The notes under the pieces: model-generated
Database searches by the model: none
What the model was told of the DNA's origin: nothing
Seen by the model: the letters and a program-made list of their open reading frames with translations, nothing else
In this document: one piece after another, positions 4,567-50,011 of the stretch
Layout of the letters: every line of letters starts with the position of its first letter
Numbering within the stretch: the stretch's first letter is position 1
Made by a program: the position numbers and the translations under genes
Assembly (NCBI GenBank): GCA_946186665.1
Contig: CAMHOE010000003.1
Location: 1 to 64,000, forward strand
Source of the DNA: an uncultured Clostridia bacterium
Lineage (GTDB): Bacteria; Bacillota; Clostridia; Oscillospirales; Acutalibacteraceae
Direction of reading: 5' to 3'
Length of the DNA: 64,000 nucleotides

Positions 4567-5031
4567 AGGTGGCAAGCTGCCACACCCGATTCGCGCTGGC
4601 GTTCGTACCCCAATGGCACTTCCTTCGGGCGCTAACGCTCACTCTGATATCCAGACCTCAACTCTTCCTGCCCGCGATTGACGGCGCAGATTTGTCAGAC
4701 AACAATCCCCATCCGCCGGCGCAGCCCTGAGGGGCTGCTGTTTCGGCTGTTTTATCAGGATATATAGTTCCTTTCCCTCTATAACTTCATGCGCCTGTAT
4801 AGTTTGAAGTTAAAGTTTTATTATACTTACTATGATTGTTTTCGCTGTGCGAAAACATACCACTATTATTCATTTTTCAGTCTTAAGTTTTCAGTATTCA
4901 TTAACTCTTGTTATGCGCCTGTACAGTTTGAAGTTAAAGTTTTATTATACTTACTATAATCCATTTTCGCTGCGAGAAAATGCGCCACAACTATTCACTA
5001 TTCGTTATTCGTTATTCACTATTCACTTTTT
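4567..5031 (-). repeat. Composite intergenic repeat, copy A (with a second partial hairpin unit)
   Basis: Read on the minus strand, this block has two heptad-periodic stretches (4990-5030 and 4862-4906). Each is followed by a GTTTTCGC...GCGAAAAC-type hairpin and the core ATAGTAAGTATAATAAAAAC (about 4938-4958 and 4813-4835). After the second unit comes the GC-rich hairpin module at about 4567-4755. A 26-bp insert lies at 4606-4631. The first hairpin, GTTTTCGCACAGCGAAAAC, is an empty insertion site. Small open frames across the block have no ribosome sites and match frames in the other copies, so I treat the block as non-coding. It fills most of the gap 4509-5322. Confidence 0.8.
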
Positions 5032-5061
5032 CCGCCTGAGGGGTTTTCATCCGGCAGTCGC

Positions 5062-5144
5062 AGACGTGTACAGCAATAGCCAAAGTGCCCCCATAGGGGC
5101 ACGACGCGGACGGGTCAAGTAAAAGTATATGCGTTCTAAGTCGT
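5062..5144 (+). repeat. 83-bp structured repeat, copy 1
   Basis: This sequence runs from AGACGTGTACAGCAATAGCC through the hairpin GTGCCCCCATAGGGGCAC to GCGTTCTAAGTCGT. It recurs in reverse orientation at 25731-25813. The hairpin arms differ between copies but remain complementary. It lies between composite repeat A and hflX. Confidence 0.7.
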
Positions 5145-5150
5145 CCAGTG

Positions 5151-5183
5151 CGGTCACGCACCGGTCACGCACCGGTCACGCAC
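5151..5183 (+). repeat. Tandem repeat, three units of CGGTCACGCAC
   Basis: Three exact 11-bp units lie head to tail at 5151-5161, 5162-5172 and 5173-5183, about 140 bases upstream of hflX. The unit is much richer in GC than the surrounding spacer. No function can be read from it; it could be a binding-site array or a slippage product. Confidence 0.85.
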
Positions 5184-5322
5184 AAGTTGTTAATAATCTT
5201 TGTTTTTCAGCATAATGTATGGTATTATATATTGTAGGGGGATAGCCGGAAGTAATTATAAATTAAGTCATGAACGGCTGTCAGAATTTTTTGTGATATA
5301 AAAAAGGGAGTGTTGCAGGAAT

Positions 5323-6570
5323 ATGTACGAGAATATTGAGAGAATACAGAGAGCGCTGCTTGTCGGAATAGATACGGGAGAATATGATGCTGAGGGTTCT
5401 ATGGATGAGCTTTTTGAGCTTGTGAAAAGTGCAGGGGCAGAACCTGTTGCAAGTATGATGCAAAAGAGAGATAAGCCTGATGGAGCTACGTGTATAGGCT
5501 CAGGCAGACTTGAAGAGATAACGGATTTTTGTGCGCAGAATGAAATTGATTTTATTGTGTTCGATGTGGAGCTTACACCTACTCAGATACGCAATATTGA
5601 AAATGCCACTGATGTACGTACTATCGACCGCACAATGCTCATTCTGGATATATTTGCTATACGTGCAAAAACAAATGAAGGAAAGCTTCAGGTAGAGCTT
5701 GCACAGCTGAAATATCTTATGCCGCGCCTTTCGGGAAAGGGCAAAGAGATGTCAAGACTCGGCGGCGGAGTCGGTACAAGAGGTCCCGGTGAAACAAAGC
5801 TTGAAACAGACAAAAGACACATCAGACGAAAGATAGAGTTTCTAAAAGAACAGCTGAGCGATATGACAAACAGGCGTGACCGGCTTCGTGAAAGGCGCAA
5901 AAAGGACGGCATCATAACAGTTGCGATAGTCGGCTATACAAACGCAGGCAAATCAACTCTGATGAATACTCTTACACAGGCAGGAGTGCTTTCCGAAAAT
6001 AAGCTTTTTGCTACCCTCGACCCGACATCAAGAGCGCTGAAGCTTCCAAACGGAGTGTCAGTCATGATGATAGACACAGTCGGACTTGTGCGAAGGCTCC
6101 CGCATCATCTTGTAGAAGCTTTCAAATCCACGCTTGAAGAGGCGTCTACGGCGGATATTATCCTCAATGTCTGTGATGCGTCCAGCGAAGAATACAAGCT
6201 TCATCTTGATGTTACGAATAATCTTCTCAGAGAACTGGGCTGTGAGGACAGACCGATAATTTCAGTTTTTAATAAATGTGACCTTGTCAGCAACCCTGAT
6301 GAGCTTCCTTCAGAAAAGGGAAGTGTTCGTATCTGCGCAAAGAGCGGAATAGGCATAGATGAGTTATTAAGAGCTGTTGAAAATAATCTGCCCGTGCGTC
6401 TTATGAAGTTTGAGCTGCTTGTACCGTTTGATAAAGCATCTATACTTGCAGTACTCAGAAAAGCAGGTGCGCTTCAATCAGAAGAATATACAGCAGAGGG
6501 CATAAAGGCGACCGCTGTTGTTGAGGAACCCCTCTGGCACCTTGTCGAAGAATACAAAGCCGCTTTCTGA
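5323..6570 (+). CDS. hflX: GTPase HflX (ribosome-associated)
   Basis: HflX is a ribosome-binding GTPase that in other bacteria splits stalled or stressed 70S ribosomes. The 415-residue product has the N-terminal HflX domain (GATCIGSGRLEEI, DVELTPTQIRN), the Gly-rich linker LGGGVGTRGPGETKLETD, and then the G domain: GYTNAGKS at residues 204-211 (G1), DTVGLVRRLPH near 251 (G3) and NKCDL near 316 (G4). Length and domain order are normal. The start ATG has GGGAG 12 bases upstream and AGGA closer by. A weak promoter (TTGTTA at 5187-5192, CATAAT at 5211-5216, spacing 18) may drive it. The gene stands alone and converges with a lipoprotein gene. Confidence 0.95.
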   Translation: MYENIERIQRALLVGIDTGEYDAEGSMDELFELVKSAGAEPVASMMQKRDKPDGATCIGSGRLEEITDFCAQNEIDFIVFDVELTPTQIRNIENATDVRTIDRTMLILDIFAIRAKTNEGKLQVELAQLKYLMPRLSGKGKEMSRLGGGVGTRGPGETKLETDKRHIRRKIEFLKEQLSDMTNRRDRLRERRKKDGIITVAIVGYTNAGKSTLMNTLTQAGVLSENKLFATLDPTSRALKLPNGVSVMMIDTVGLVRRLPHHLVEAFKSTLEEASTADIILNVCDASSEEYKLHLDVTNNLLRELGCEDRPIISVFNKCDLVSNPDELPSEKGSVRICAKSGIGIDELLRAVENNLPVRLMKFELLVPFDKASILAVLRKAGALQSEEYTAEGIKATAVVEEPLWHLVEEYKAAF

Positions 6571-6586
6571 AAGGAAGCATAACAAA

Positions 6587-6631
6587 ATGGAGTGTAAAAA
6601 TCAGGAGCTTACTCCGGTCTTTACACTCCAT
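6587..6631. terminator. Hairpin between convergent hflX and lipoprotein gene
   Basis: ATGGAGTGTAAA (6587-6598) pairs perfectly with TTTACACTCCAT (6620-6631). Short A-rich and T-rich flanks lie on both sides, which suits a bidirectional terminator, although the T run is weak. Confidence 0.65.
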
Positions 6632-6645
6632 ATTTTCAGATGTTT

Positions 6646-7443
6646 TTATCCTTCTCTGATCATTCTGTGATTGCCGTTCTTGCTGACGAGAGCACCGTCC
6701 TTGTATGTAAAAAGCTCTTCGTTGCCTTCAAGGATAATGCTGACATTATCGCCCTCCGAGCTCCATGTTCCGTTAAGCTCTTTGCCGGAAGATACTCCCA
6801 GTGCAACACCGCCCTTATAAAGGTCAACATACAGTGATGATGCGGTGATCTCGCTTGCGTCCTCGTCGATAGAGTTTTCATAAAGCAGTACCCAAAGACC
6901 TTCATACTTCTGGTCGGCAAAGGAATACGTCTGTATCTGTTCCTCGCTGCCTTCATCTACTGAAAGACCTTTGGAAAAATACACGGTATCGTTTGTCTCG
7001 TAATAAAGCCTTTTGTCTTTATAAATGAAAACCGTGTCCTCGCCAGAATTATGGACAGTAAGCTTATCGCCGTCTGCCTTCCATGTACCTTCCTGAGTAA
7101 CTCCGTCACGGCTCAGAATAACCGTTCCGTCCTCGCCCAGCGCCATCATAAGAACATAATCATCAGTAACAATGCTCCATGTTCCTGCAAATTTTTTTAC
7201 CGACTCATCATCAGGCTTTTCCGCAGACGAAGCTGTGCTGTTTTCATCCTGAGCCGAGACCGCCGAAGAAGTTTTTTCCACATCTTCAGCTTTGTCGTCT
7301 GATAAAGCATGACTTACGTTTTCATCAGAGCTTTGAACTGCCTGTGATGGTTCGCTTTCATCTGCTTTTGTTTCCGAGCATCCTGCCGCAAAAAGCGCAA
7401 TTGCTCCGCACATAAGGAGTGCGGCTATTGATTTAATTTTCAT
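6646..7443 (-). CDS. Lipoprotein with lipocalin-like repeats
   Basis: The 265-residue product begins MKIKSIAALLMCGAIALFAAGCSE, a lipoprotein signal with lipobox FAAGC. An acidic Ser-rich linker (to about residue 80) leads into two related units containing GTW...DG/EGD...G.W and YKDKRLYYE or YKDGALVSK. This pattern (a repeated G-x-W strand followed by a lysine-tyrosine hairpin) resembles the small beta-barrel repeats found in many clostridial lipoproteins (DUF5640 or lipocalin-like). It is probably held on the outer face of the membrane and may bind a small ligand. GGAAG lies about 10 bases before the ATG. No operon partner is evident. Confidence 0.8.
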   Translation of the reverse strand: MKIKSIAALLMCGAIALFAAGCSETKADESEPSQAVQSSDENVSHALSDDKAEDVEKTSSAVSAQDENSTASSAEKPDDESVKKFAGTWSIVTDDYVLMMALGEDGTVILSRDGVTQEGTWKADGDKLTVHNSGEDTVFIYKDKRLYYETNDTVYFSKGLSVDEGSEEQIQTYSFADQKYEGLWVLLYENSIDEDASEITASSLYVDLYKGGVALGVSSGKELNGTWSSEGDNVSIILEGNEELFTYKDGALVSKNGNHRMIREG

Positions 7444-7554
7444 ATAATTCTCACTTCCGGATCATTTATTTTTTTCACAGATATCTCCGTGTTATTATCT
7501 GCAAACAAAATTTACTTACTATAGCATTTCATAATAATAGCAAAAATGCGTATC

Positions 7555-7625
7555 AAAGTCAGCGAATTTAGGAAGGGGGTTCGGGGGAAACCATTTTTTC
7601 GCCAGAAAATGGTTTCCCCTGAGGA
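7555..7625. repeat. Hairpin repeat, copy 1 (related to 36070-36165)
   Basis: A 14-bp perfect stem (GGGGAAACCATTTT at 7584-7597 and AAAATGGTTTCCCC at 7606-7619) has a short TTCGCCAG loop. It is preceded by TCAGCGAATTTAGGAAGGGG. The same lead-in and a stem of changed sequence occur at 36070-36165. It lies between the lipoprotein and the LURP-like gene and could act as a terminator for the latter. Confidence 0.65.
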
Positions 7626-7663
7626 ACTCACCTGATGTGCTTATATAATTATATTGCTGCAAG

Positions 7664-8155
7664 TCAGCAGAGGTCAGAAAAAACAGGGTCCTCATTGAGA
7701 ACAGACATATAAACATCCGCGCATATTGCGCAGGATATTGCGAATAATTCCTGTGCGGACTTGTATATTTTCAGCTCATATCCGCTGCCGAATTTTCCCC
7801 AGCATTTCTTTTGCGTCATTACCGGACTTTTATCCACGTCATACAGCGAAAATCTGCCGGTTTCTATATTTCCTGCAAACCTGAGGGAGCTTCCGAATAT
7901 CGTGAAATAAAAATATTCCTTTATATGCGGTGTAAGAGCGTACATCCTTCCTCCGCAGCGTATAGTAAAATACGACAGCACTATTTCTGAATGTGTGATC
8001 TCAGAAACGACTGTTCCTGCCGGATCTTCCATAAGCATTTTTTGTCTTATCGCATCGGTTGATATGCTTATATTGTATCTTGGATTTGCCGATTCATCAT
8101 ATACTGTAAAGCTGACGCTGTCGTCTGTATCGTTTCGTTTAAGGAACAGCTTCAT
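7664..8155 (-). CDS. LURP-one-related (tubby-like) family protein
   Basis: The 163-residue product starts MKLFLKRNDTDDSVSFTVYDESANPRYNI. It fits the LOR/DUF567 fold: short strands with FTVYDE, SLRFAGNIETGRFSLYDVD and WGKFGSGYELKIY. These proteins form a 12-stranded beta barrel around a central helix. Their biochemical role in bacteria is not established, though phospholipid-related roles have been proposed for relatives. AGAGGTG lies at a good distance before the ATG. It is the last gene of a three-gene unit with the XRE regulator and the ImmA-like peptidase, 42 bases after the latter, so it may act with them. Confidence 0.65.
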   Translation of the reverse strand: MKLFLKRNDTDDSVSFTVYDESANPRYNISISTDAIRQKMLMEDPAGTVVSEITHSEIVLSYFTIRCGGRMYALTPHIKEYFYFTIFGSSLRFAGNIETGRFSLYDVDKSPVMTQKKCWGKFGSGYELKIYKSAQELFAISCAICADVYMSVLNEDPVFSDLC

Positions 8156-8197
8156 AATTAATTCACCTCTTTACAGAAAAGCGGCTGTTTCAACACT

Positions 8198-8635
8198 TCA
8201 TATCATCAAAGCCCTGTCCACTATTTCCTGTGGTATATGCGTTAGTCTTGAAACAGTTTCCGCAGTTACACTATCCAGCCCTTCAAGCTCTGACATTTCT
8301 GACTGTATCAGAAGCATAGCCGCAAAGCAGTCTGCTTCCTTTTCATATTTTGTCACACAGAAGCTTGTATTACAGCTGAGATTGAGGGTATTTGTACCGT
8401 TATGCAAAACTATATGTCCCAGCTCGTGTGCCTTTGTCAGACGCTTTTCGTAAAAACTCAGCGCCTTGTTCAGAACGATGAATGATATCTCATACATTTT
8501 CACGGTAAAGCCGTTGACACGCTCAGGCAACTCCTGATCTATAGTTATTATGCCCATTTTCTCGCAAAGCTCATCAAGCTCGCAGGTGCCGTACTGACGT
8601 GTAAGCTCCTGTATCTTTTTCCTTATTTTTTCCAT
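8198..8635 (-). CDS. ImmA/IrrE-type zinc metallopeptidase
   Basis: The 145-residue product carries the zinc motif HELGH inside KAHELGHIVLHNG, and a downstream glutamate region EKEADCFAAMLLI that supplies the third ligand. This is the ImmA/IrrE (Peptidase_M78) pattern. Such proteins usually cleave or inactivate the XRE-type repressor encoded next to them, and the XRE gene lies 17 bases upstream here. ATG at 8633-8635 was chosen because AGAGG lies 5 bases upstream; the GTG two codons earlier is part of that ribosome site. The peptidase probably relieves repression at the divergent promoter region near 9118-9254 after an unknown signal. Confidence 0.85.
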   Translation of the reverse strand: MEKIRKKIQELTRQYGTCELDELCEKMGIITIDQELPERVNGFTVKMYEISFIVLNKALSFYEKRLTKAHELGHIVLHNGTNTLNLSCNTSFCVTKYEKEADCFAAMLLIQSEMSELEGLDSVTAETVSRLTHIPQEIVDRALMI

Positions 8636-8652
8636 AAGCACCTCTCATTTGT

Positions 8653-9051
8653 TCAGCCCTTGTCAAGCGCGGCCTTATGCTGCTGTCTTGCAAGTGCCGC
8701 AACCACCTTTATAGCTTCAATTATCTTTATCCTGTCCTCACGGTCAAGCGGCACTCCGTCAAACATAAGCCCCTCCTGCTGTGTAAGACGTTTTGTAAAC
8801 TCGTCAAACACCTCAGCGACTTCCACATTTCCTTTAGTATCCGAGGTTTCCGGATCCCCTATAAGATAATCTACCGACACTCCGAACACACTGCACAGTT
8901 TTCTCAATGTATTATTATCCGGCTCTCTGCGTCCCTGTTCGTACATTCCTACTGCCGAAGCCGAAATGCCCAATTCTGATGCAAGCTCTGACTGTGTCAT
9001 CCCCGCATTTTTCCTGAGCTGTTTTATCCTTCCGCCTAACTGACTTTTCAT
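8653..9051 (-). CDS. XRE-family helix-turn-helix repressor
   Basis: The 132-residue product begins MKSQLGGRIKQLRKNAGMTQ. It has a Cro/CI-type HTH in its first ~65 residues (MTQSELASELGISASAVGMYEQGRREPDN) and ends in a helical tail. It is cytoplasmic and DNA-binding. ATG at 9049-9051 is preceded by AGAGG with 8 bases spacing; the upstream GTG overlaps this ribosome site. It leads the operon XRE - ImmA-like peptidase - LURP-like gene. Its own promoter (9118-9146) contains an inverted repeat between -35 and -10 that could be its autoregulatory operator. Confidence 0.9.
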   Translation of the reverse strand: MKSQLGGRIKQLRKNAGMTQSELASELGISASAVGMYEQGRREPDNNTLRKLCSVFGVSVDYLIGDPETSDTKGNVEVAEVFDEFTKRLTQQEGLMFDGVPLDREDRIKIIEAIKVVAALARQQHKAALDKG

Positions 9052-9117
9052 TTCTGACACCTCTTATTATACTTTTTCTGTTTTCAAGTCATCTGTTTAT
9101 CTGTATTGTTTTCCTGC

Positions 9118-9146
9118 ATTATACCACACGTTATGTGTAATTGCAA
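9118..9146 (-). promoter_or_regulatory. Promoter and possible operator of the XRE operon
   Basis: On the minus strand TTGCAA (9141-9146) and TATAAT (9118-9123) are separated by exactly 17 bases. The spacer holds the inverted repeat ACAC-N5-GTGT (9126-9138), a likely repressor site that would be covered when RNA polymerase is blocked. The start would be near 9111. Confidence 0.7.
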
Positions 9147-9226
9147 GAGGTTTTTTGGATTATTGAACGTAAAGCGAAAATTTGTTCTCTTTTTGGTACA
9201 ACCGAACAATTTTTCGAAAATATGTA

Positions 9227-9254
9227 TTGAAATTCAAAAAAACTCGGATATAAT
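9227..9254 (+). promoter_or_regulatory. Promoter of the 68-aa / sigma-like gene pair
   Basis: TTGAAA (9227-9232) and TATAAT (9249-9254) are 16 bases apart. They point away from the XRE operon, so the two units are divergent and about 80 bases apart at their -35 elements. The ~110-base leader has a weak AAGGGC/GCCTT hairpin near 9303-9333. Confidence 0.6.
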
Positions 9255-9373
9255 AATAATTACAAAAGGTTTAATCCTCTTTTATAAAGTAATGAAGTCC
9301 TTAAGGGCGAAGGGGAGAGCCTTTATATTTTTTATTATTAAAGTACACGAACCGTGTAGAAAGTGAGGTCAAA

Positions 9374-9580
9374 ATGACATACAAGGAATGGGCAGAGGAA
9401 TACATAGAGAGCGCCGAAACACTGAAACGCAAAATATCACTTTTAAAAAACGAAGCCGAATTTGCGCCCGCTGCAAAGCTGCGCGATTTAAACAACAGGA
9501 TATCCATAATGTACGGTATGTATCTTGACTGCATGAAAACGGCAGATATACTTGTCAAAAGGGAGGGCACAGCATATTGA
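9374..9580 (+). CDS. Small hypothetical protein, 68 aa
   Basis: The product, MTYKEWAEEYIESAETLKRK..., is predicted to be almost wholly helical (two amphipathic helices, 3-30 and 35-62), with no signal peptide or membrane segment. GTGAGGTC precedes the ATG. Its stop codon overlaps the TTG start of the sigma-like gene, so the two are translated together. The small helical protein may be a partner or anti-factor of the downstream protein, by position only. I do not recognise a named family. Confidence 0.7.
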   Translation: MTYKEWAEEYIESAETLKRKISLLKNEAEFAPAAKLRDLNNRISIMYGMYLDCMKTADILVKREGTAY

Positions 9581-9873
9581 AGCATCAGAAGTTTTCGCTG
9601 AACGATGAGCATGACAGAAATTATTCAATGAAAATGTTTTTGTCACAGCAATATGATACCGGAGATCCCAGACACCGGCGCATGAAAGAGCTGCTCAAAG
9701 CCGCCATACGTCTGGAGCTTACAGAAAGGCAGAAAGCCTGTATACGTATGTATTATTTTGAAAAAATACCCGTTGCAGAAATAGCAGAGCTTTTAGGGAT
9801 AAGACCTACCACAGTTTACAAGCATCTCAATGTCGCAAGAAGATCTCTGAAAAAGTGCAGGGAATATTTGTAG
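9577..9873 (+). CDS. Sigma-70 region-4-like DNA-binding protein
   Basis: The 98-residue product has a C-terminal helix-turn-helix of the sigma-70 region 4 kind (LTERQKACIRMYYFEKIPVAEIAELLGIRPTTVYKHL, from residue ~49). It lacks region 2, so it cannot act as a normal sigma factor alone. Similar short proteins occur in prophages and integrative elements of Clostridia, where they activate late or transfer genes. Translation most likely begins at TTG 9577-9579 inside the overlap TTGA with the preceding gene; GGGAGG lies about 10 bases upstream. Together with the XRE/ImmA pair it resembles the control module of a mobile element, but no integrase or structural gene is near. Confidence 0.75.
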   Translation: MKHQKFSLNDEHDRNYSMKMFLSQQYDTGDPRHRRMKELLKAAIRLELTERQKACIRMYYFEKIPVAEIAELLGIRPTTVYKHLNVARRSLKKCREYL

Positions 9874-9936
9874 CCGCTGAATAATTTTTTATGCTTTGTC
9901 AAGAATAGTATTATCCGATCATTTCGCATATGCAAA

Positions 9937-9966
9937 TTGACCGGTCGTGCATCTGCACAGTAATAC
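9937..9966 (+). promoter_or_regulatory. Possible promoter of the DUF378 gene
   Basis: TTGACC (9937-9942) and TAATAC (9961-9966) have 18-base spacing. The -10 match is modest. The spacer contains TCGTGCATCTGCACAG with a short inverted repeat. Confidence 0.35.
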
Positions 9967-9992
9967 TATTGTATGAGATCGGAGGTATATTT

Positions 9993-10205: not shown

Positions 10206-10276
10206 CAAAGTGTATACACACAAAGCTTCTTTACAATAACAAACAAGAGATCCTGATCCATGAGCTTTTAAAAAAT

Positions 10277-10350: not shown

Positions 10351-10456
10351 GTGGAAGTCACTTCTGCTTGGAATTTGACCTATCCACCGCCTGCCACTTT
10401 TTGCTGACAGCCACTATAAGCTATACGGGAAATTGAGATCATGTTTACTGTAAAGC

Positions 10457-10507: not shown

Positions 10508-10548
10508 ATTTATTTTATACAGTTGCCTGACAGGAAAATCATTTTCTG

Positions 10549-12886: not shown

Positions 12887-13253
12887 CAGAGCCTGCGCTC
12901 CCAATTCGCGGCGGCAAGCTGCCGCACCCGATTCGCGTTGGCGTTCGCTAAAGCTCACTCTGATATAATGACCGAAACTCTTCCTGCCCGCGATTAACGG
13001 CGCGGAACCGGCAGACACTCATCCCCGTCCGCCGGCGCAGCCTTAGGGCTGCTGTTTCGGCTGCACTCTCCGAGCAGACAGTTTCTCCACCTCCTCAAAT
13101 ATGTGCGCCTGTACAGTATAAAGCTATAGTTTTTTATTACACTTACTATATTTCGTTTTCGTACCCCAAGGGCACTTCCTACGGGCGCCCCAGCGAAAAC
13201 GTACCACTATTATTCATTTTTAAGTTTTAAGTTTTCAGTATTCATTTATTCAC
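12887..13253 (-). repeat. Composite intergenic repeat, copy B
   Basis: Read on the minus strand, the block has a heptad stretch (13204-13252), a GTTTTCGC...GCGAAAAC hairpin with a 26-bp insert at 13162-13187, the AT palindrome core (13134-13155) and then the GC-rich module (about 12887-13060). Removing the insert leaves GTTTTCGCCCCAGCGAAAAC. The 113-codon open frame across 12677-13018 lacks a ribosome site and follows repeat sequence, so I do not call it a gene. Confidence 0.8.
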
Positions 13254-21807: not shown

Positions 21808-22131
21808 ATTAATGAATACTGAAGACTTAAGACTTAAAAATGAATAATAGTGGTACGTTTTCGCTGAAGCGAAAACGAATTATAGTAAGTATAATAAAAA
21901 CTACAGTTTTATACTGTATAGGCGCATAAAGTTGAGAAGGATAAAAAAAACAGCAAATCAGTATTAAACAGCCGAAACAGCAGGCTCTTAGCCTGCGCCG
22001 GCGGATGGGGACAAGTGTCTGACAAGTCTGCGCCGTTAATCGCGGACGGTGAAGTTGTGGTTAGTTTGACAGAGTGAGCTTTAGCGAACGCCAACGTGAA
22101 TCGGGAGCGCAGGCTCTGCGCCGTGGGAGGG
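21808..22131 (+). repeat. Composite intergenic repeat, copy C, inside the spoIIIA cluster
   Basis: The block carries a heptad stretch (21805-21853), an empty hairpin GTTTTCGCTGAAGCGAAAAC (21858-21877), the palindrome core with AATTATAGTAAGTATAATA (about 21878-21896), and the GC-rich module (about 21955-22125). The GC-rich hairpin here is GCAGGCT/AGCCTGC, whereas other copies have GCAGCCC/GGGCTGC, a paired change. The repeat fills the whole gap between spoIIIAB and spoIIIAC, and its end GGGAGG serves as the spoIIIAC ribosome site. Confidence 0.85.
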
Positions 22132-25842: not shown

Positions 25843-26468
25843 GGAGTGAGGAATTAGGAGTGAGGAGTTAATAGTGAATAGTTGTGGTATGTTTTCGTAC
25901 CCCAAGGGCACTTCCTACGGGCGCACAGCGAAAATCATTTATTCGATTTAGTCAAGAGCTATATACACGCACTTCCTACGGGTGCACGGCGAAAATGGAT
26001 TATAGTAAGTGCTGTAAAGAATTACAACTGCATCCGCTGAGTGGAAACTCCTCCGTTAAAATTTTACTATGTAAATCTTTGCCACCTCCCCTTTCAGGAG
26101 AGGCAGAAAAAGTGAATAGAGAATAACGAATAACGAACAGTGAATAGTTGTGGTATGTTTTCGTACCCCAAGGGCACTTCCTATGGGCGCACAGCGAAAA
26201 CAATCATAGTAAGTATAATAAAAACTACAGTTTTACACTGTACAGGCGCATGAAGTTATGGAGGGAAAGAAACTGTATATCCGGAAAAAACAGCCGAAAC
26301 AGCAGCCCTCAGGCTGCGCCGGCGGATGGGGACGGATGTCTGTCAGTTCTGCGCCGTCAATCGCGGACAGTGAAGTTGTGGTTAGTTTTTCAGAGTGAGC
26401 TTTAGCGAACGCCGCCGCGAATTGGGAGTGCAGGCTCTGCACCGCGAATTGGGAGCGGCGGCTCGCCG
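25843..26468 (+). repeat. Composite intergenic repeat, copy D (two hairpin units)
   Basis: The first unit has a heptad stretch GTGAGGA ATTAGGA GTGAGGA GTTAATA GTGAATA (25846-25880), a hairpin with a full 26-bp insert at 25898-25923, and a partial second insert near 25969-25984. The second has another heptad stretch (26111-26152), a hairpin with an insert at 26164-26189, the core CATAGTAAGTATAATAAAAAC (about 26203-26223) and the GC-rich module (about 26285-26468). Removing the second insert leaves GTTTTCGCACAGCGAAAAC, identical to the empty site in copy A. A non-repeat stretch (about 26020-26105) lies between the units. Confidence 0.85.
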
Positions 26469-33652: not shown

Positions 33653-34078
33653 TGAATAGTGAATAGTGAATAGTTGTGGTACGTTTTCGCTTATGCGAAA
33701 ACGAAATATTGTAAGTATAATAAAAACTATGACTTCATACCGCACAGGCGCATAATGAATAAATGAATACTGAAAACTTAAGACTTAATAATGAATAATA
33801 GTGGTCTGTTTTCGCGATGCGCAAACAATCATAGTAAGTATAATATAAACTATGACTTCATACCGTACAGGCGCATAAAGTTGTGGAGGGGAAGAAACTA
33901 TATATCCGTAGAAAACAGCCGAAACAGCAGCCCCTTAAGGGCTGCGCCGGCGGATGGTAACAAGAGTCTGACAAATCTGCGCCGTCAATCGCGGGCAGGA
34001 AAAGTATCGGTCCGGATATCAGAGTGAGCGCAAGCGAACGAGGGCGCGAATCGGGAGCGCAAGCCTTGCGCCTTGCGC
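33638..34078 (+). repeat. Composite intergenic repeat, copy E (two hairpin units)
   Basis: Unit 1 has heptads (33638-33674, GTGAATA and GTGAATAAT-type), the empty hairpin GTTTTCGCTTATGCGAAAAC and the core ATTGTAAGTATAATAAAAAC. Unit 2 has heptads of the GAATACT GAAAACT TAAGACT TAATAAT GAATAAT kind (about 33764-33801), a decayed hairpin, the core CATAGTAAGTATAATATAAAC and the GC-rich module (about 33912-34078). No 26-bp insert is present, so this is the empty state for both sites. It directly follows the peptidase gene and overlaps its end. Confidence 0.85.
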
Positions 34079-36165: not shown

Positions 36166-36167
36166 TT

Positions 36168-39170: not shown

Positions 39171-39410
39171 AAGTTTCGCCAGCCTTTTCAAAGGCTGCGA
39201 GGTCCATGGGGCAGAGCCCCTGGTCGCCGTCCGCAGACGCCCATAGGAAGTACCCTTGGGGTACGGCGAAACCCCCTTTTTTAATCCCTCGGAATGGGGT
39301 GAATTCAAAAACAGTCCTGTGGACTGTTTTTGAAGAGGGGAAGCCCTGGAAGAGGGCTTCCCCTTGTAGCGGTCATAACAAAGTACCTCTGCTGCCGCAA
39401 GGCAGCACGA
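39171..39410. repeat. Hairpin-rich intergenic block with a 26-bp insert
   Basis: The block has TTTCGCC/GGCGAAA arms, a full 26-bp insert at 39238-39263 (minus orientation), and three perfect hairpins: AAAAACAGTCC/GGACTGTTTTT (39307-39331), GGGGAAGCCCT/AGGGCTTCCCC (39337-39363) and CTGCTGCC/GGCAGCA-type (39389-39409). It is built like the composite repeats but from different hairpins. It lies between uppP and ftsK. A 104-codon frame through it has no ribosome site. Confidence 0.65.
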
Positions 39411-43973: not shown

Positions 43974-44707
43974 CAGAACATCGCCTCCTGTTTATAGCAT
44001 TTTCCGGATATGGCATGGTTCTCATTGAGCTTCTGCATCATACTGTCAGCCTTGCCCTGAGCCTTTATGCTGCCGTTTGCAACAATGACTATTTCGTCTG
44101 CGATATTCAGTATTCTTTCCTGATGGGATATTATTATCATTGAACCCTTCAGGCTGCTGCGAATTTCCTCAAAGGTTTTTATAAGGCTTGTGAAGCTCCA
44201 CAGGTCGATACCTGCCTCAGGCTCATCGAATACCGTAAGCGCGGAATGTCTTGCAAGCACCGTAGCTATTTCTATTCTTTTTATTTCTCCTCCGGACAGA
44301 GTGGAATTCACCTCTCTGTTGATGTACTCCTCAGCGCAGAGTCCCACCTTGCTGAGGATATCGCAAAGCTTATCAACAGGCAGCTTTTCACCTGCTGAAA
44401 GCTCTATAAGCTTTCTTACGGTAATGCCCTTGAAGCGCACGGGCTGTTGAAAAGCAAAGCTTATGCCGGCTCCGGCTCTTTCCGTTATATCCATATCGGA
44501 TATATCCTTGTCATCAAGGAATATCCTGCCGCTGTCCTGCTTATACAGTCCTGCGATAATTTTAGCAAGAGTTGTTTTTCCTCCGCCGTTAGGTCCGGTA
44601 ATAACAACAAGCTTTCCGTCCGGCACTGTAAGGCTGATATCCTTCAGCACTCCGACACCGTCAGGCGTTGACCATGATATATTTTCAAGTCTTAGCAATT
44701 TTACCAT
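43973..44707 (-). CDS. sufC: SufC-type Fe-S assembly ATPase
   Basis: The ~244-residue product is an ABC ATPase with Walker A GPNGGGKTT, the Q-loop FAFQQPVRFKG, the signature LSGGEIKRIEIA and Walker B LTVFDEPEAGIDL. SufC drives shape changes in the SufB scaffold. The EPEAGID segment differs from the usual ETDSGLD of classical SufC, as expected for the minimal SUF-like type. The start is uncertain: ATG 44707 has AAAGG directly beside it, while TTG 44698 gives a more family-like N-terminus and better spacing. A promoter lies at 44743-44772. Confidence 0.85.
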   Translation of the reverse strand: MVKLLRLENISWSTPDGVGVLKDISLTVPDGKLVVITGPNGGGKTTLAKIIAGLYKQDSGRIFLDDKDISDMDITERAGAGISFAFQQPVRFKGITVRKLIELSAGEKLPVDKLCDILSKVGLCAEEYINREVNSTLSGGEIKRIEIATVLARHSALTVFDEPEAGIDLWSFTSLIKTFEEIRSSLKGSMIIISHQERILNIADEIVIVANGSIKAQGKADSMMQKLNENHAISGKCYKQEAMF

Positions 44708-44742
44708 CCTTTTCAAAAAAACTTTATAGAATAATCCTATAT

Positions 44743-44772
44743 ATTATACCACATCCCTTCTTGATAATACAA
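44743..44772 (-). promoter_or_regulatory. Promoter of sufCB
   Basis: On the minus strand TTGTAT (44767-44772) and TATAAT (44743-44748) are 18 bases apart, with a TGG extension before the -10. It is divergent from the fhs promoter, whose -35 lies 44 bases away. Confidence 0.65.
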
Positions 44773-44815
44773 TTGTTTTTTATACTTTTATTGGTATTTT
44801 CTTGTTGTAATGATG

Positions 44816-44844
44816 TTGTATAAAATTTATTTTTATGGTAGAAT
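44816..44844 (+). promoter_or_regulatory. Promoter of fhs
   Basis: TTGTAT (44816-44821) and TAGAAT (44839-44844) are 17 bases apart, with an extended TGG before the -10. The leader is about 60 bases, with no recognised riboswitch. Confidence 0.6.
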
Positions 44845-44908
44845 GTAGAGAAGAGGTTTATTCGGGACGTCTTTTGCCCGTAACTACATTAATAAAGGAG
44901 ATAATACC

Positions 44909-46576
44909 ATGCTTACGGATATTGAAATAGCTCAGCAGGCACAGCCACTGCCGATACTGAAGATCGCAGAAAAACTCGGTATTGATGAAGAATACCTCGA
45001 ATACTACGGCAAATACAAGGCTAAGCTGTCTGAGGAGCTTATAGGAAAAATGTCAGCTTCTCAGGACGGAAAGCTCATTCTTGTAACGGCTATCAATCCC
45101 ACTCCTGCCGGCGAGGGAAAGACTACTACCTCTGTAGGCCTTGGAGACGCGCTTTCAAAGCTCGGCAGGAAAACCATTATCGCTCTCAGAGAACCCTCAC
45201 TCGGACCCGTGTTCGGCGTAAAGGGCGGCGCTGCCGGCGGCGGATATGCTCAGGTCATTCCTATGGAGGATATCAACCTTCACTTCACAGGTGATATGCA
45301 CGCTATCACAGCTGCCAATAATCTGCTGTGCGCTATGCTCGATAACCATATCCAGCAGGGCAACAGCCTGAAAATAGATGTGAAGAGAATACTTATCAAA
45401 CGATGTCTTGATATGAACGACCGTGAGCTGAGAAATATCGTTGCAGGTCTTGGCGGCAGAGTAAACGGTGTTCCCCGTGAGGACGGGTTTATCATCACCG
45501 TTGCAAGTGAAGTTATGGCTATTCTTTGCCTGTCTAAGGATATCGACGACCTTAAGGAACGTCTCGGAAAAATTCTTGTCGCTTACACTACAGAGGGTGT
45601 TCCGGTATATGCTTCCGACCTGAAAGCCAACGGTGCAATGACTGCACTTCTGAAGGACGCTATAAAGCCTAACCTTGTCCAGACCTTAGAGGGTACTCCG
45701 GCTATTATGCACGGCGGTCCCTTTGCAAATATCGCTCACGGATGTAACTCTGTCAGGGCAACGAAGCTCGGTCTTAAGCTTGCGGATTACTGCGTCACAG
45801 AAGCAGGCTTCGGCTCTGATCTCGGAGCGGAAAAATTCTTTGATATAAAGTGCAGGAAGGCAGGACTCAAGCCCTCTGCTGTCGTTATAGTGGCTACTGT
45901 ACGTGCGCTCAAATATAACGGCGGTGTTCCGAAAGCAGAGCTTGGCAGCGAGAATATTGAAGCTCTCCAAAAGGGCATTGTAAATCTTGGTGTACATATT
46001 GAAAATATGCACCGCTATGGTGTTCCGGTAGTAGTTGCAATAAACCGTTTCGGCGCTGATACCGACAAAGAGCTTGAGCTTATAGAAAACTACTGCAAGG
46101 AGCTTGGAGCAGACTTTGCGTTGTCCGAGGTCTTTGCAAAAGGCGGTGCCGGCGGAACAGAGCTTGCGCAGAAGGTCATTGACGCTGCTGAGAAGCCGTC
46201 AGACTTCAAACCGCTTTATTCTGCTGAGCTTTCCATAAAGGACAAGGTAAGAGAGATAGCAGCAAAGATATACGGCGCAGACGGAGTTATATACACCACT
46301 GCTGCGGAAAAGGCTATAGCAGAGATAGAAAAGCTTGATGTATCCGGACTTCCGGTATGTATCGCAAAGACGCAGTATTCGCTGTCTGATGACCCTGCTC
46401 TTTTAGGTAAGCCGCAGGGCTTCAATATCACCGTTCGTGATGTCAGACTTTCTAACGGCGCAGGCTTTGTTGTTGTATACACAGGCGATATCATGACTAT
46501 GCCGGGCTTGCCGAAGGTGCCTGCCGCAGAAAAGATAGATGTGGACAGCAGCGGTAAGATAACCGGACTTTTCTGA
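44909..46576 (+). CDS. fhs: Formate--tetrahydrofolate ligase
   Basis: The enzyme joins formate to tetrahydrofolate with ATP and feeds one-carbon units to purine and amino acid synthesis. The 555-residue product has the family P-loop [14 protein letters not shown] near residue 65, the [22 protein letters not shown] segment, [15 protein letters not shown] and the C-terminal [18 protein letters not shown]. The length is normal. AAAGGAG precedes the ATG. tsaE and tsaB follow on the same strand, with the gap to tsaE only 16 bases. Confidence 0.97.
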
Positions 46577-46592
46577 CAGGAGAGATACAGAC

Positions 46593-47015
46593 TTGCAAAA
46601 GCACATAACTACAAGTGAAGCTCAGACTGAACGGCTTGCTGAAAAACTTGCACTTACACTACAGGGTGATGAAGTGCTTGCGCTGCATGGAGGTCTGGGC
46701 GCAGGCAAAACGGCTTTTACCAGAGGTCTTGCAAGGGGACTGGGAATTGATGACGGTGTTTCAAGCCCGACCTTTGCGCTGGTGCATGAATATGACGGCA
46801 AATTCACACTGTACCATTTTGATATGTACAGAATAGGTTCCTACGATGATTTATACTCAACAGGCTTTTTTGATTATGAGGGCTGCGGAGTAATGGTTAT
46901 AGAATGGAGCGAAAATATAGAAGCGTTCCTGCCGGAGAAACGCATAAACATATATATAGAGCGTATATCCGACAATGAACGTGAGATAACTATAGAGGGG
47001 GCAAAGCCCATATGA
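46593..47015 (+). CDS. tsaE: tRNA t6A synthesis ATPase TsaE
   Basis: TsaE works with TsaB and TsaD to make N6-threonylcarbamoyl-adenosine in tRNAs that read ANN codons. The 140-residue product has Walker A GGLGAGKTAF near residue 33, the SSPTFALVHEY motif, LYHFDMYRI, and VMVIEWSENIE (Walker B region). Translation begins at TTG 46593-46595, with AGGAG about 10 bases upstream. It overlaps tsaB by four bases (ATGA). Confidence 0.93.
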   Translation: MQKHITTSEAQTERLAEKLALTLQGDEVLALHGGLGAGKTAFTRGLARGLGIDDGVSSPTFALVHEYDGKFTLYHFDMYRIGSYDDLYSTGFFDYEGCGVMVIEWSENIEAFLPEKRINIYIERISDNEREITIEGAKPI

Positions 47016-47755
47016 AAATACTTGCGATAGACACAACGGCTTCACCGGTGTCAGCGGCACTGCTGAATGACGGCTTTCTGCTGGGAGAGTTTTTTCTCAA
47101 CACGAAAACCACCCACAGCCAGACGCTCATGCCGCTTGTGGACTCTCTTCTGAAAACGACAGATACAGATATAAAGGACATAGATGTATTTGCGGTCAAT
47201 GCAGGACCCGGCTCGTTTACGGGAGTACGCATCGGAGTTGCTTCTGTAAAGGGTATGACCATGCCGCTGGATAAGCCCTGTGCAAGCATTTCAACGCTGG
47301 AGTCGATGGCGTATTCCATGCCTTATACAGACGGTATAGTCTGCGCTGTGATGGACGCACGCTGCTCACAGGTCTATAATGCGCTTTTTATGCTTGACAA
47401 CGGCACGATAGAACGCATTACTGAGGACAGGGCAATAAGCATATCAGAGCTTGAAAATGAATTGAGCTATTATGAAGAGAGCAGCATATATCTTGTAGGG
47501 GACGGCGCACTGCTTTGTTATCAGAGCTTTGAGGGCAGACTTCCTAACGTACAGCTTACACCTATGAACATACGCTATCAGCACGCCTATGGTACAGCTA
47601 TGGCTGCACAGAAGCTTGCGGAGAGCGGAAAGCTTATCACATCAGATGAGCTTATGCCTGTATACTTAAGACTTCCGCAGGCAGAGCGTGAGCTGAAAGC
47701 AAAACAGCAAAAAGAACAGAACGACCAAAACGAACAGAATGCAGATAATAAATGA
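47012..47755 (+). CDS. tsaB: tRNA t6A synthesis protein TsaB
   Basis: TsaB is the non-catalytic partner of TsaD in t6A synthesis. The 247-residue product starts MKILAIDTTASPVSAAL and has NAGPGSFTGVRIGVASVKGM and AVMDARCSQVYNALF, typical of TsaB. The C-terminal end is a Gln/Asn/Glu-rich tail (KQQKEQNDQNEQNADNK), probably disordered. The start overlaps the stop of tsaE. The usual neighbours rimI and tsaD are not present. Confidence 0.93.
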   Translation: MKILAIDTTASPVSAALLNDGFLLGEFFLNTKTTHSQTLMPLVDSLLKTTDTDIKDIDVFAVNAGPGSFTGVRIGVASVKGMTMPLDKPCASISTLESMAYSMPYTDGIVCAVMDARCSQVYNALFMLDNGTIERITEDRAISISELENELSYYEESSIYLVGDGALLCYQSFEGRLPNVQLTPMNIRYQHAYGTAMAAQKLAESGKLITSDELMPVYLRLPQAERELKAKQQKEQNDQNEQNADNK

Positions 47756-47789
47756 ATAAGTGCGTATACAAAAGAAAGAGGGTAACATA

Positions 47790-48239
47790 ATGAAGCTTGC
47801 AATATCCTGTGATCACGGCGCATATGAACTGAAGGAATCCATAAAAAAGCATCTTGACGAAAAGGGGATAGAGTACAAGGATTTTGGCTGCTATTCCAAA
47901 GACTCTGTTGATTATCCCAGATTTGCCTATATTGCGGCGAAGGCGGTTGCTGATAAGGAATACGATTTCGGCATAATATGTTGTACTACCGGACTCGGTG
48001 TTTCTATGGCGGCAAATAAAGTAAAGGGCGTACGTGCCGCAGTATGTACCAATGAAATGTTAGCTGAAATGACAAGGCGTCACAATAATGCAAATGTCAT
48101 TTGTATGGGACAGAACGTAGTCTCTCAGGAGTTGGCTGACAAGATGATAGATATTTTCATCTCAACTGAATTCGAGGGCGGACGTCATCAGCGCAGAGTA
48201 GACCTTCTCACCGACATCGAAAACGGAACGCTTGAATAA
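47790..48239 (+). CDS. rpiB: Ribose-5-phosphate isomerase B
   Basis: RpiB interconverts ribose-5-phosphate and ribulose-5-phosphate in the pentose phosphate pathway. The 149-residue product begins MKLAISCDHGAYELKESI. It has the active-site loop IICCTTGLGVSMAANK (family usually CGTG, here CTTG), AVCTNEMLAEMTRRHNNANV and the phosphate-binding GGRHQRRVD. GAGGG lies before the ATG; the longer frame from 47760 has no site. The CTTG loop is the one unusual residue change and could affect activity or indicate a sugar-phosphate isomerase of slightly different specificity. Confidence 0.88.
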   Translation: MKLAISCDHGAYELKESIKKHLDEKGIEYKDFGCYSKDSVDYPRFAYIAAKAVADKEYDFGIICCTTGLGVSMAANKVKGVRAAVCTNEMLAEMTRRHNNANVICMGQNVVSQELADKMIDIFISTEFEGGRHQRRVDLLTDIENGTLE

Positions 48240-48245
48240 TTGTGT

Positions 48246-48327
48246 TCAGTGGTCAGTGGGAAGTGGTCAGTGGTAAGTGTGCAGCTTTCCACATTTAATT
48301 CCACTTTCCACTTTCCACATTCCACAT
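48246..48327. repeat. Opposed heptad stretches after rpiB
   Basis: CAGTGGT CAGTGGG AAGTGGT CAGTGGT AAGTGTG (48247-48281) is followed by minus-oriented TTCCACT TTCCACT TTCCACA TTCCACA-type heptads (48297-48327). Two different heptad types face each other here, without the hairpin modules. Confidence 0.65.
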
Positions 48328-48371
48328 TAATCAGTAAGCCTTATCAGTTTCCGATTATTTTTGCAGGATGC

Positions 48372-48503
48372 TCAGCAGCCGCAGCCACAGTTGTTGTTGT
48401 CACAGCCGCAGCCGTTGTTGCCGCCGCAGCAGCAGGAGAGGATAACGATGAGGATTATCACCCAAGCACAGCTGTTGTTACCGAAAAAACCATTGTTACA
48501 CAT
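48372..48503 (-). CDS. Gly/Cys/Asn-rich small membrane peptide, 43 aa
   Basis: The product has a start MCNNGFFGNNSC, one membrane helix (WVIILIVILSCCC, residues 13-25) and a Gly/Asn/Cys-rich tail (GGNNGCGCDNNNCGCGC), with ten cysteines in 43 residues. The ribosome site AAGGAGG is one of the strongest in the window. The layout resembles YjcZ/YczM-type small peptides of spore formers (Gly-rich ends around one helix), but that link is only by composition. It lies just upstream of sigG in the same orientation, though 250 bases separate them. Confidence 0.7.
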   Translation of the reverse strand: MCNNGFFGNNSCAWVIILIVILSCCCGGNNGCGCDNNNCGCGC

Positions 48504-48760
48504 AATAATTTCCTCCTTGTAATGTTTCAGCGGCATTGACAGAATGCGGCTTTTGTGTAAAGCTATAATACTTGTCGCGGCATCTATCATAACTTTAGTC
48601 GGCTTTTTTCTGTCTGCTGCCGTTTACATTACATACTACGCACAGCCGCAAAAAACGTTACAATATCCCGGTTTCAGGATAATAAACTTTTTGCGAGGGC
48701 GGATGATATCGTGTAAATAAAACAGCTTTACAGTGCTTGTGTCCTAAATATCACAAACTT

Positions 48761-49552
48761 TCAGTCAGGTGAAAGCTCAGTCCGTATCCTTTTGAGTGCA
48801 CCCTTTTCCAGACGTGAGACCTGCGCCTGACTTATGCCTATCTCATCAGCGACCTCTGTCTGTGTCTTGCCCTTGAAATAACGAAGTGATAGAATGTGTT
48901 TTTCACGCTCTCCCAAGGAGCGTATGGCTTCCTTCAGGGCTATTTCGTCAAGCCAGTTATTGTCATCGTTGCTGTCGCCTATCTGGTCCATTACATAAAT
49001 CGTATCCGAACCGTCAGAAAAAACAGGCTCATAAAGTGAAACAGGTTCTACGATTGATTCAAGAGCTATAACTACATTTTCCTTTGGAAGCTCCAGTCGC
49101 GCAGCTATTTCTTCAATAGACGGTTCACGGTCGTTTTCATTGGTGAGCAGTTCCTTTATCTGCATTGCTTTATATGCGATGTCCCTGAGTGAACGGCTGA
49201 CTCTCAGCGTGTTGTGGTCTCTGAGGTATCGTCTCACCTCGCCGATTATCATTGGCACACCATATGTGGAAAAACGCACGTCTTTTTCACAATCGAAATT
49301 GTCTATTGCCTTGATAAGTCCGATACATCCCACCTGAAACAGGTCGTCAGGGTTTTCACCTCTTCCGGAAAATCGCTGTATCACACTCAGCACAAGCCTG
49401 AGGTTGCCGCTTATCATTTCCTCACGTGCGCATTTTTTCTGGGATGGAGTACCGTTTTTCATTGTTTTAAGGAGCTGTTGTTTTTTATCTTCCGGGAGCA
49501 CCGGCAGCTCAGATGTGTTTACCCCACATATCTCTACCTTATTATACAGCAT
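48761..49552 (-). CDS. sigG: Sporulation sigma factor SigG
   Basis: SigG directs late gene expression in the forespore. The 263-residue product starts MLYNKVEICGVNTSELPVLPE, the SigG-specific N-terminal motif that gyrase/anti-sigma partners recognise. It has region 2 (NLRLVLSVIQRFSGRGENPDDLFQVGCIGLIKAIDNFD, VRFSTYGVPMIIGEVRRYLRD) and region 4 (LGEREKHILSLRYFKGKTQTEVADEIGISQAQVSRLEKGAL). GGAGG precedes the ATG. sigE and spoIIGA, its usual neighbours in Bacillus, are not in the window. Confidence 0.95.
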   Translation of the reverse strand: MLYNKVEICGVNTSELPVLPEDKKQQLLKTMKNGTPSQKKCAREEMISGNLRLVLSVIQRFSGRGENPDDLFQVGCIGLIKAIDNFDCEKDVRFSTYGVPMIIGEVRRYLRDHNTLRVSRSLRDIAYKAMQIKELLTNENDREPSIEEIAARLELPKENVVIALESIVEPVSLYEPVFSDGSDTIYVMDQIGDSNDDNNWLDEIALKEAIRSLGEREKHILSLRYFKGKTQTEVADEIGISQAQVSRLEKGALKRIRTELSPD

Positions 49553-49626
49553 GAATATACCTCCGCTTAGAGATTTATGGTAATAGTATTGACACCTGAC
49601 AGACTAATAATTCAGGGGTGCGGAAA

Positions 49627-50011
49627 TAGTGAATAGTGAATGGTGAATAGTGAATGGTGAATAGTGAATAGTTGTGGTACGTTTTCGCTGGGGCGCCCGA
49701 AGGAAGTGCCCTTGGGGTACGAAAACAATCATAGTAAGTGTAATAAAAACTTCGACTTCAAACTGTACAGGCGCATAAAGTTGAGTAGGGAAAGAGACTG
49801 TATATCCGAATGGAGACAGCCGAAACAGCAGCCCCTAAGGGCTGCGCCGGCGGACGGAGACAAGTGTCTGACAAGTCTGCGCCGTCAATCGCGGACAGGA
49901 AGAGTTTCGGTCAGAATAACAGAGTGAGCGTTAGCGCCCGAAGGAAGTGCCCTTGGGGTACGAACGAGGGCGCGAATCGGGAGCGCAGGCTCTGCGCCCC
50001 GGGCTCTGCGC
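49627..50011 (+). repeat. Composite intergenic repeat, copy F (two 26-bp inserts)
   Basis: Six GTGAATA/GTGAATG heptads (49629-49670) precede a hairpin with an insert at 49694-49719 in minus orientation. Removing it leaves GTTTTCGCTGGGGCGAAAAC, the exact complement of the emptied copy B site. The core CATAGTAAGTGTAATAAAAAC (49731-49751) and the GC-rich module (about 49808-50011) follow, and a second 26-bp insert lies in it at 49935-49960. Copy F therefore carries inserts at both known sites. It lies between sigG and tRNA-Leu. Confidence 0.88.

What the first reader, a model, noticed from the sequence alone, without database searches (positions are those of the whole stretch)
4606..49960. A 26-bp sequence inserted cleanly into other repeats
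Seven near-identical 26-bp sequences (begin TACCCC, end GGGCG) lie at 4606-4631, 13162-13187, 25898-25923, 26164-26189, 39238-39263, 49694-49719 and 49935-49960. Six sit in the composite repeats at one of two sites, always after TTCG and before C. Deleting the insert from copy D restores GTTTTCGCACAGCGAAAAC, identical to the empty hairpin of copy A. Deleting it from B and F gives complementary versions of GTTTTCGCCCCAGCGAAAAC. Both orientations occur. This is direct evidence of precise insertion or excision of a very small element, smaller than any transposon I know. It may spread by recombination, by hairpin-targeted strand transfer, or by template switching.
Basis: seen in the sequence. Interest (0 to 1): 0.82.

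Follow-up and report, generated by a model that had tools for sequence, protein, structure and literature searches.

The report
A 26-bp sequence that inserts precisely
A DNA sequence only 26 letters long turns up, cleanly inserted into many different repeats, in Ruminococcus and in distantly related marine, sediment and symbiotic bacteria, so it behaves like one of the smallest mobile DNA elements known, moved by something not yet identified.

Summary
The genome holds 90 copies at up to 3 mismatches, none for the reversed control. The sequence occurs in 14 of 61 genomes of the genus, in 1 of 398 sampled from the phylum (the window's own), and also in Gammaproteobacteria, Thermodesulfobacteriota and Marinithermofilum. 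Exact 26-bp filled/empty pairs exist in several genomes. At one orthologous Thiodiazotropha locus it is present in one genome and absent from three relatives, the closest included. Precise insertion of a discrete unit is thus well supported. The target rule is not TTCG|C: over 66 host contexts the junction is purine|pyrimidine in 60 (background 24%) and G|C in 42 (7%). Hairpin tips are hit in the window's own repeats but not generally. A REP-type transposase is not supported. Much of the copy number comes from amplified host repeats that already carry the insert. The closest known kind is the 21-27 nt small dispersed repeats of Nostoc (Elhai 2008; not held, recalled). The mover is unknown; single-strand cut-and-rejoin is my leading guess.

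The parts
4606..4631 (+). 26-bp element in GCGTTCG|CTAACGC hairpin (site class 2), TTCGGG subtype
13162..13187 (+). 26-bp element in GTTTTCG|CCCCAGCGAAAAC hairpin (site class 1)
25898..25923 (+). 26-bp element in GTTTTCG|CACAGCGAAAAT hairpin (site class 1, host repeat in the other orientation)
26164..26189 (+). 26-bp element in GTTTTCG|CACAGCGAAAAC hairpin (site class 1)
   Evidence: 26-bp gap against an empty paralogue in L043 (28 and 37 of 40 flanking bases)
39238..39263 (-). 26-bp element in a different repeat, TTTCGCCG|TCTGCGGACGGCG (site class 4)
49694..49719 (-). 26-bp element in class 1 hairpin; 26-bp gap against empty paralogue L009 with 38 of 40 flanking bases identical on each side
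49935..49960 (-). 26-bp element in class 2 hairpin of the same composite repeat
4838..4856 (-). empty class 1 hairpin GTTTTCGCACAGCGAAAAC
21857..21876 (+). empty class 1 hairpin GTTTTCGCTGAAGCGAAAAC
33683..33702 (+). empty class 1 hairpin GTTTTCGCTTATGCGAAAAC
12942..12962 (+). empty class 2 site CGTTCGCTAAAGCTCACTCTG
22070..22090 (-). empty class 2 site
26391..26411 (-). empty class 2 site
34020..34040 (-). empty class 2 site, CTTGCGC form

Best explanation
A discrete, non-coding mobile sequence of 26 bp (related units of 24, 25, 27 and 34 bp exist in other genomes) that inserts precisely between a purine and a pyrimidine, mostly G|C, and leaves no target duplication longer than one or two bases. 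It codes for nothing and must be moved in trans. Shown: exact-unit gain or loss, tandem copies joined at the unit's own boundary, both orientations, and presence in different host repeats of at least three phyla. Inferred: the mover is an enzyme that cuts one strand at R|Y at both feet of the unit and rejoins it at another R|Y, preferring exposed single strand such as hairpin loops where the genome offers them. After insertion, copies also multiply passively when the host repeat is amplified.
For: Unit and boundaries: seven copies of exactly 26 bp; site class 5 (CTCTGC|CCCA, L054 and L046) allows only one parse, 26 bp with no duplication; tandem arrays of period exactly 26 in G473, for example C8:6599/6625/6651. 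Filled/empty: exact 26-bp gaps with 39 of 40 matching bases on each side in L192/L074 and 38 of 40 in window 49694/L009, others. Orthologous locus A: G487 filled, G476, G474 and G484 empty, same host repeat; G476 is the closest to G487 (88-99% in the aligned stretches, most at 93% or more; G474 and G484 75-88%), so one gain in G487 is the simplest reading. Loci C and E: two genomes filled at the same locus but on opposite sides of the hairpin loop and in opposite orientation. Target: R|Y in 60 of 66 contexts against 24%, G|C in 42 of 66 against 7%, hardly any information further out. Spread.
Against: No enzyme found: no mobile gene recognised by eye among the 25 cross-group protein clusters read from 111 neighbourhoods (no family search was run on them). 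The unit's own fold is weak, no better than shuffled sequence (z -0.20, 0.54, -1.25, 0.34), which speaks against hairpin recognition of the HUH/Y1 type. Hairpin sites are not general: neither measure is raised above its control and some lie below it. Most class 2 copies in the window's genome read CTAACGC, whereas the 58 exact empty sites read CTAAAGC (56) or CTAAGGC (2), so they are largely one amplified filled lineage, not separate insertions. At locus A the left part of the host repeat in G487 resembles G474 and G484 more than G476, so recombination or gene conversion at that locus cannot be excluded. The 66 contexts were cut at a similarity threshold and some are related to each other.
Confidence: 0.6

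Rival explanations
1. No dedicated mover: the unit spreads only by recombination, gene conversion and amplification of host repeats that already carry it.
For: Most class 2 copies in the window's genome look like one amplified filled lineage. All 17 copies fetched from G058, G044 and G048 (10, 4 and 3 of 28, 21 and 9 exact copies) sit in one repeat family. At the L131 locus of Thiodiazotropha the host repeat is missing or rearranged in relatives. Two inserts flanking 27 bp (L054, L046) and fused forms (L029, L025) suggest recombination between copies. Mixed affinity of the host repeat at locus A.
Against: The same 26-mer sits in 66 contexts with hardly any shared base beyond the junction, across phyla, and in exact filled/empty pairs. 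Conversion needs flanking homology, which unlike hosts do not offer.
Confidence: 0.2
2. A RAYT or IS200/IS605-type Y1 transposase moves it as a REP-like hairpin.
For: 18 of 20 other element-bearing genomes have a Y1 hit (5 of 14 control genomes do, but no background for these groups was measured); the size is REP-like; REP dimers are known to sit inside palindromes (PMC3733652, passages).
Against: Genus: Y1 hits in 4 of 14 bearing and 12 of 47 non-bearing genomes; the window genome's best hit has an internal stop. None of 20 Y1 genes looked at, of 92 Y1 matches, has a copy nearby (best 9-12 mismatches). No GTAG or CGTC tag. Weak fold. G476 (37 copies) and G472 have no Y1 hit (both MAGs).
Confidence: 0.1
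3. Template switching or microhomology-driven copying during replication, helped by hairpins, with the 26-mer as a recurrent donor.
For: One to four bases of homology between left flank and element end in 54 of 66 contexts; symmetric sites on the two arms of one palindrome.
Against: A fixed unit with the same two ends in different contexts and phyla is not expected from chance switches; the shared bases are largely the G of the junction rule.
Confidence: 0.15
4. RNA-templated insertion (as proposed, from recall, for Nostoc SDRs) or an RNA-guided recombinase acting on a core dinucleotide, as in IS110.
For: A 2-bp core-like junction; IS621 goes into REPs and recombines a 22-bp donor around a core dinucleotide with the bridge RNA supplied in trans (PMC11208160, passages).
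Against: A 26-bp double-stranded circle is not plausible; no RNA, reverse transcriptase or IS110 link was tested.
Confidence: 0.12

Closest known systems
Small dispersed repeats (SDR) of Nostoc and relatives (Elhai et al. 2008, Genome Res.; paper not held; content recalled, plus a passage in PMC4390886)
   Same: 21-27 nt units inserted precisely in other repeats and in copies of themselves (recalled); one (SDR5) inserts at a fixed place in a palindrome (HIP1, between nucleotides 3 and 4, per PMC4390886)
   Different: Found in Ruminococcus, Gammaproteobacteria, Thermodesulfobacteriota and a bacillus, where SDRs were (recalled) confined to a group of cyanobacteria; target is only a purine|pyrimidine step; orthologous filled/empty locus shown here. 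Sequences could not be compared
REP/PU sequences and REPINs with RAYT (TnpAREP)
   Same: 20-60 bp, intergenic, many copies, nested in palindromes at times (PMC3116915, PMC3733652, PMC6006769; passages)
   Different: No tag, weak fold, no copy beside 20 Y1 genes looked at, no correlation with Y1 genes in the genus
IS110-family and other insertion sequences that target REPs (IS621; IS1397 recalled)
   Same: Clean insertion into palindromic repeats, short core
   Different: Kilobase elements with a transposase (recalled size); here 26 bp and no gene
MITEs
   Same: Non-autonomous, often intergenic
   Different: 70-300 bp (PMC3733652, passage), with terminal inverted repeats and target duplications (recalled)

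Membership tests
SDR-like very small mobile repeats | Unit of about 21-27 nt at many dispersed places | tested here: met
   26 bp, 90 places in one genome
SDR-like very small mobile repeats | Precise presence/absence of the unit in otherwise matching sequence | tested here: met
SDR-like very small mobile repeats | Nested or tandem insertion in own copies (recalled) | tested here: met
   period-26 tandem arrays; true nesting inside a copy was not shown
SDR-like very small mobile repeats | Common secondary structure with compensatory changes (recalled for SDR4-6) | tested here: inconclusive
   fold weak and not better than shuffles; variants listed, no formal covariation count
SDR-like very small mobile repeats | Sequence homology to a described SDR family | not tested
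   paper and sequences not held
REP / RAYT (TnpAREP) | GTAG or CGTC tag beside the hairpin | tested here: not met
   flanking bases carry hardly any information beyond the junction base
REP / RAYT (TnpAREP) | Stable imperfect palindrome | tested here: not met
   four variants folded
REP / RAYT (TnpAREP) | Y1 transposase gene in the genome, often flanked by the repeat | tested here: not met
   no correlation in genus; none of 20 Y1 genes looked at is flanked by the element; but 18 of 20 other bearing genomes do have a Y1 hit
MITE / insertion sequence | Terminal inverted repeats and target-site duplication of a known transposase | tested here: not met
   class 5 site: 26 bp with no duplication; the ends match as inverted repeats only over CCC/GGG

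The most novel reading that the evidence does not exclude
A DNA unit of 26 bp is a substrate of a still unknown, horizontally shared trans-acting activity that cuts and rejoins one strand at purine|pyrimidine steps. It would be among the smallest transposing units in nature and, unlike the cyanobacterial SDRs, would work with one and the same sequence in at least three phyla.
Probability: 0.35. Interest if true: 0.9.

Novelty: new variant of a known kind. Interest (0 to 1): 0.75.

Why it matters
How sequences far too small to encode or even bracket a transposase become dispersed is an old open question (REPs, SDRs). Here the same 26-mer is found in distant phyla, with a simple junction rule, tandem arrays that fix the unit, and an orthologous filled/empty locus between relatives. 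Together these make it possible to look for the mover by gene presence and absence and to test it directly. It would also mean that such units are not a cyanobacterial curiosity.

Tried and rejected
RAYT/Y1 as the mover: tested by genus correlation, by presence in 20 other genomes and by looking beside 20 of 92 Y1 matches; not supported. Hairpin-tip rule as a general target: rejected by two controls. Rfam family: only a tRNA at gathering threshold in the window. Shared mobile gene beside the copies: none recognised by eye among the 25 cross-group clusters printed. Element under stronger conservation than its flanks: seen, but the copies were chosen by similarity to the element, so I do not use it. 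Carriage on phages, plasmids or E. coli: no match for a 34-base query. Viral contigs: 0 for the strict pattern, 1 for the loose one (L417, the 27-bp form). Orthologous intergenic regions in the window's own genus: relatives too distant (about 65-80% in the long matches listed). First orthologous locus tried (L131): no element in any of 29 stretches from 21 relatives, where the host repeat is missing or rearranged (G476 has an inverted copy without the element), so uninformative. The unit's own hairpin: not better than shuffles. Sequence strings in the paper library: 0 papers; other paper searches (listings; passages read of five papers and of a sixth).

Rows dropped before counts: of the 90 places I fetched 89 (C72:8652 was left out by oversight). 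For some searches, copies with less than 50 bases of flank or with N, and copies more than 2 mismatches from the two patterns used, were dropped before the count of 288; 28 of the 288 with another copy in the flank were dropped, leaving 260 in 66 contexts. The contexts were formed by a similarity cut (20 of 36 junction bases), so some are related to each other. Some sites were fetched twice under two locus ids, which affects member counts, not the number of contexts. Absence of a copy in L397-L416 was judged by a motif search and, at locus A, by alignment.
Full report
The finding. Seven 26-bp copies lie at the stated window coordinates. In the whole genome (2.55 Mb, 101 contigs) there are 54 exact matches to TACCCC-N15-GGGCG (26 forward, 28 reverse) and none for the pattern read backwards, and 90 at up to 3 mismatches of TACCCCAAGGGCACTTCCTWCGGGCG, again against 0. 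In the window six of seven overlap no reading frame of 100 aa; the seventh overlaps a 104-aa frame. Of 89 copies examined genome-wide, 12 lie in a frame of at least 120 aa, while 84% of the window lies in such frames. So the copies are mostly intergenic.

Sites in this genome. I sorted the copies by flank. Class 1 is the hairpin GTTTTCG|C..GCGAAAAC, with the insert after the 5' arm on either strand, so that both orientations of the host occur. Class 2 is GCGTTCG|CTAACGC. Class 3 is GCGCAGAG|CCTGCGC, where the element starts with C. Class 4 is TTTCGCCG|TCTGCGGACGGCG. Class 5 is GGGGCTCTGC|CCC. Class 5 allows only one parse: exactly 26 bp, no target duplication. L054 and L046 carry inserts in classes 4 and 5 of the same repeat, 27 bp apart; L029 (1495) and L025 (6762) carry one insert joining the outer flanks, as a deletion between the two copies would leave.

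How many are separate insertions. Empty class 1 hairpins are common: 53 sites, 47 of them matched on both strands. Empty class 2 sites read CTAAAGC (56) or CTAAGGC (2) in all 58 perfect matches, and CTAACGC in none; one listed near match, C17:12903, reads CGTTTGCTAACGC. Most filled class 2 copies read CTAACGC, so they look like one filled lineage that was amplified with its host. L058 (CTAAAGC), L055 (CTTGCGC) and L015 (CTGCGC) have other flanks and look like separate events or conversions. This weighs against counting each copy as an insertion.

Other genomes. In the genus 14 of 61 genomes have the sequence, with 47 copies in G000 and 38 in G059 by the pattern. In a spread sample of the phylum only the window's own genome of 398 has it. 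FD-1, M. abyssi and Desulfopila sp. IMCC35006 are not labelled MAG, so MAG contamination is not the whole story. Twenty genomes chosen from these hold between 1 and 120 copies at up to 2 mismatches, control 0. G473 has arrays of exact period 26. An Acidiferrobacterales REP (L193) holds one 26-mer and three 34-bp units with the same ends in its interior.

The junction. Grouping 260 non-tandem copies by flank gave 66 host contexts. The base before the element is a purine in 64 of 66 (G in 57), the base after it a pyrimidine in 62 of 66 (C in 51); both hold in 60, against 24% for such steps in the surrounding DNA. G|C holds in 42 of 66 against 7%; beyond the junction no position carries more than 0.2 bits. 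The tandem junction GGGCG|CACCCC obeys the same rule. Some contexts are related to each other, so 66 is an upper figure for independent hosts.

Hairpins. In the window's genome the main classes are hairpin tips. Across all contexts this fails: within 2 nt of a predicted loop in 31 of 66 against 40% at shifted positions (P 0.11), inside a loop in 11 of 66 against 26%, and mean spanning pairs 3.74 against 4.13. Hairpins are thus a feature of some hosts, not a general rule. Within suitable hosts they may matter (loci C and E below).

Filled and empty. Local alignments of the fetched loci gave 64 cases with a gap of 18-40 bases at an element, duplicates included. Clear ones are L192/L074 (39 of 40 and 39 of 40 flanking bases), window 49694/L009 (38 and 38), L247/L251, L189/L177, and L278/L170 for the 27-bp form. 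For orthologous loci I used the genus of G474 (22 genomes) and loci that hold the Thiodiazotropha host repeat. Locus A: G487 (L378) is filled; G476 (L397), G474 (L371) and G484 (L359) have the same host repeat at the same place without the 26 bp. G476 and G487 are the closest pair (88-99% in the aligned stretches, most at 93% or more; G474 and G484 are 75-88% to G487), so a gain in G487 needs one event and the alternative at least two losses. Against this simple story, the left part of the host repeat in G487 resembles G474 and G484 more than G476, so conversion is not excluded. Locus B: G487 filled; G484 has a diverged repeat without the unit; G476 lacks most of the repeat. Locus E: G487 and G474 are filled; no copy was found in G476 by motif search. 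At loci C and E two genomes are both filled, but on opposite sides of the loop and in opposite orientation, which fits insertion after the 5' arm of either strand, or movement across the hairpin. Locus D has a copy in both the G484 and G487 stretches, but my alignment window missed the G487 copy, so it is not used.

The mover. A Y1 (RAYT/IS200) domain is found in 16 of 61 genus genomes: 4 of 14 with the element, 12 of 47 without. The window genome's best hit carries a stop. Of the 20 other genomes 18 have a Y1 hit (5 of 14 control genomes do); I have no background rate for their groups, and none of 20 Y1 genes fetched, of 92 matches, has a copy nearby. The element's fold is no better than that of shuffled sequence. 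No mobile gene was recognised among the 25 shared clusters read beside copies. The agent therefore remains unknown. My leading guess is a single-strand cut-and-rejoin at R|Y on both feet of the unit: it explains the missing duplication, the tandem junction, both orientations and the use of loops where they exist. This step is inferred.

What is known. Nostoc SDRs (Elhai et al. 2008) are the nearest kind; the paper is not held, so its content is recalled. A passage in PMC4390886 states that SDR5 inserts precisely between nucleotides 3 and 4 of HIP1. PMC3733652 (passages) reports REP dimers inside palindromes. PMC11208160 (passages) reports IS621 going into REPs and a 22-bp donor used with the bridge RNA in trans. 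Four fragments of this element's letters were found in no paper of the library. I file it as a new variant of very small dispersed mobile repeats, not as a REP.

Noticed in passing
25969-25984: GCACTTCCTACGGGTG, a 5'-truncated relative of the element in a second hairpin-like context between two full copies
   Followed up: no
57831-62386: Array of repeats often spaced by multiples of 69 bp (repeat finder D1, D2), perhaps a leucine-rich-repeat surface protein (recalled type, not searched)
   Followed up: no
L193 1501-1628: REP of an Acidiferrobacterales MAG with one 26-mer and three 34-bp units sharing both ends (CACCCCAAGGGCACTT..TTCGGGCG) in tandem: a second, longer unit type
   Followed up: partly
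L244, L255, L261, L262 (genome G473): Tandem arrays, some mixing 24-, 25- and 26-bp relatives of the unit, in a genome with 120 copies; looks like unit evolution inside arrays
   Followed up: partly
L417 3077-3103: One viral contig (IMGVR_UViG_3300027851_000111) holds the 27-bp form, a possible vehicle between hosts
   Followed up: partly
L054, L046, L029, L025: Two inserts in one repeat and fused forms that look like deletion between the two 26-bp copies
   Followed up: partly
L362/L380, L372/L381: Same-locus copies in two Thiodiazotropha-genus genomes on opposite sides of the hairpin loop in opposite orientation
   Followed up: partly
50081-50164: tRNA gene, the only Rfam match in the window at gathering threshold
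   Followed up: no
21804-49688 (composite repeats): Host repeats carry runs of GTGAATA heptamer-like units (D4), reminiscent (recalled) of the heptamer arrays around Nostoc SDRs
   Followed up: no
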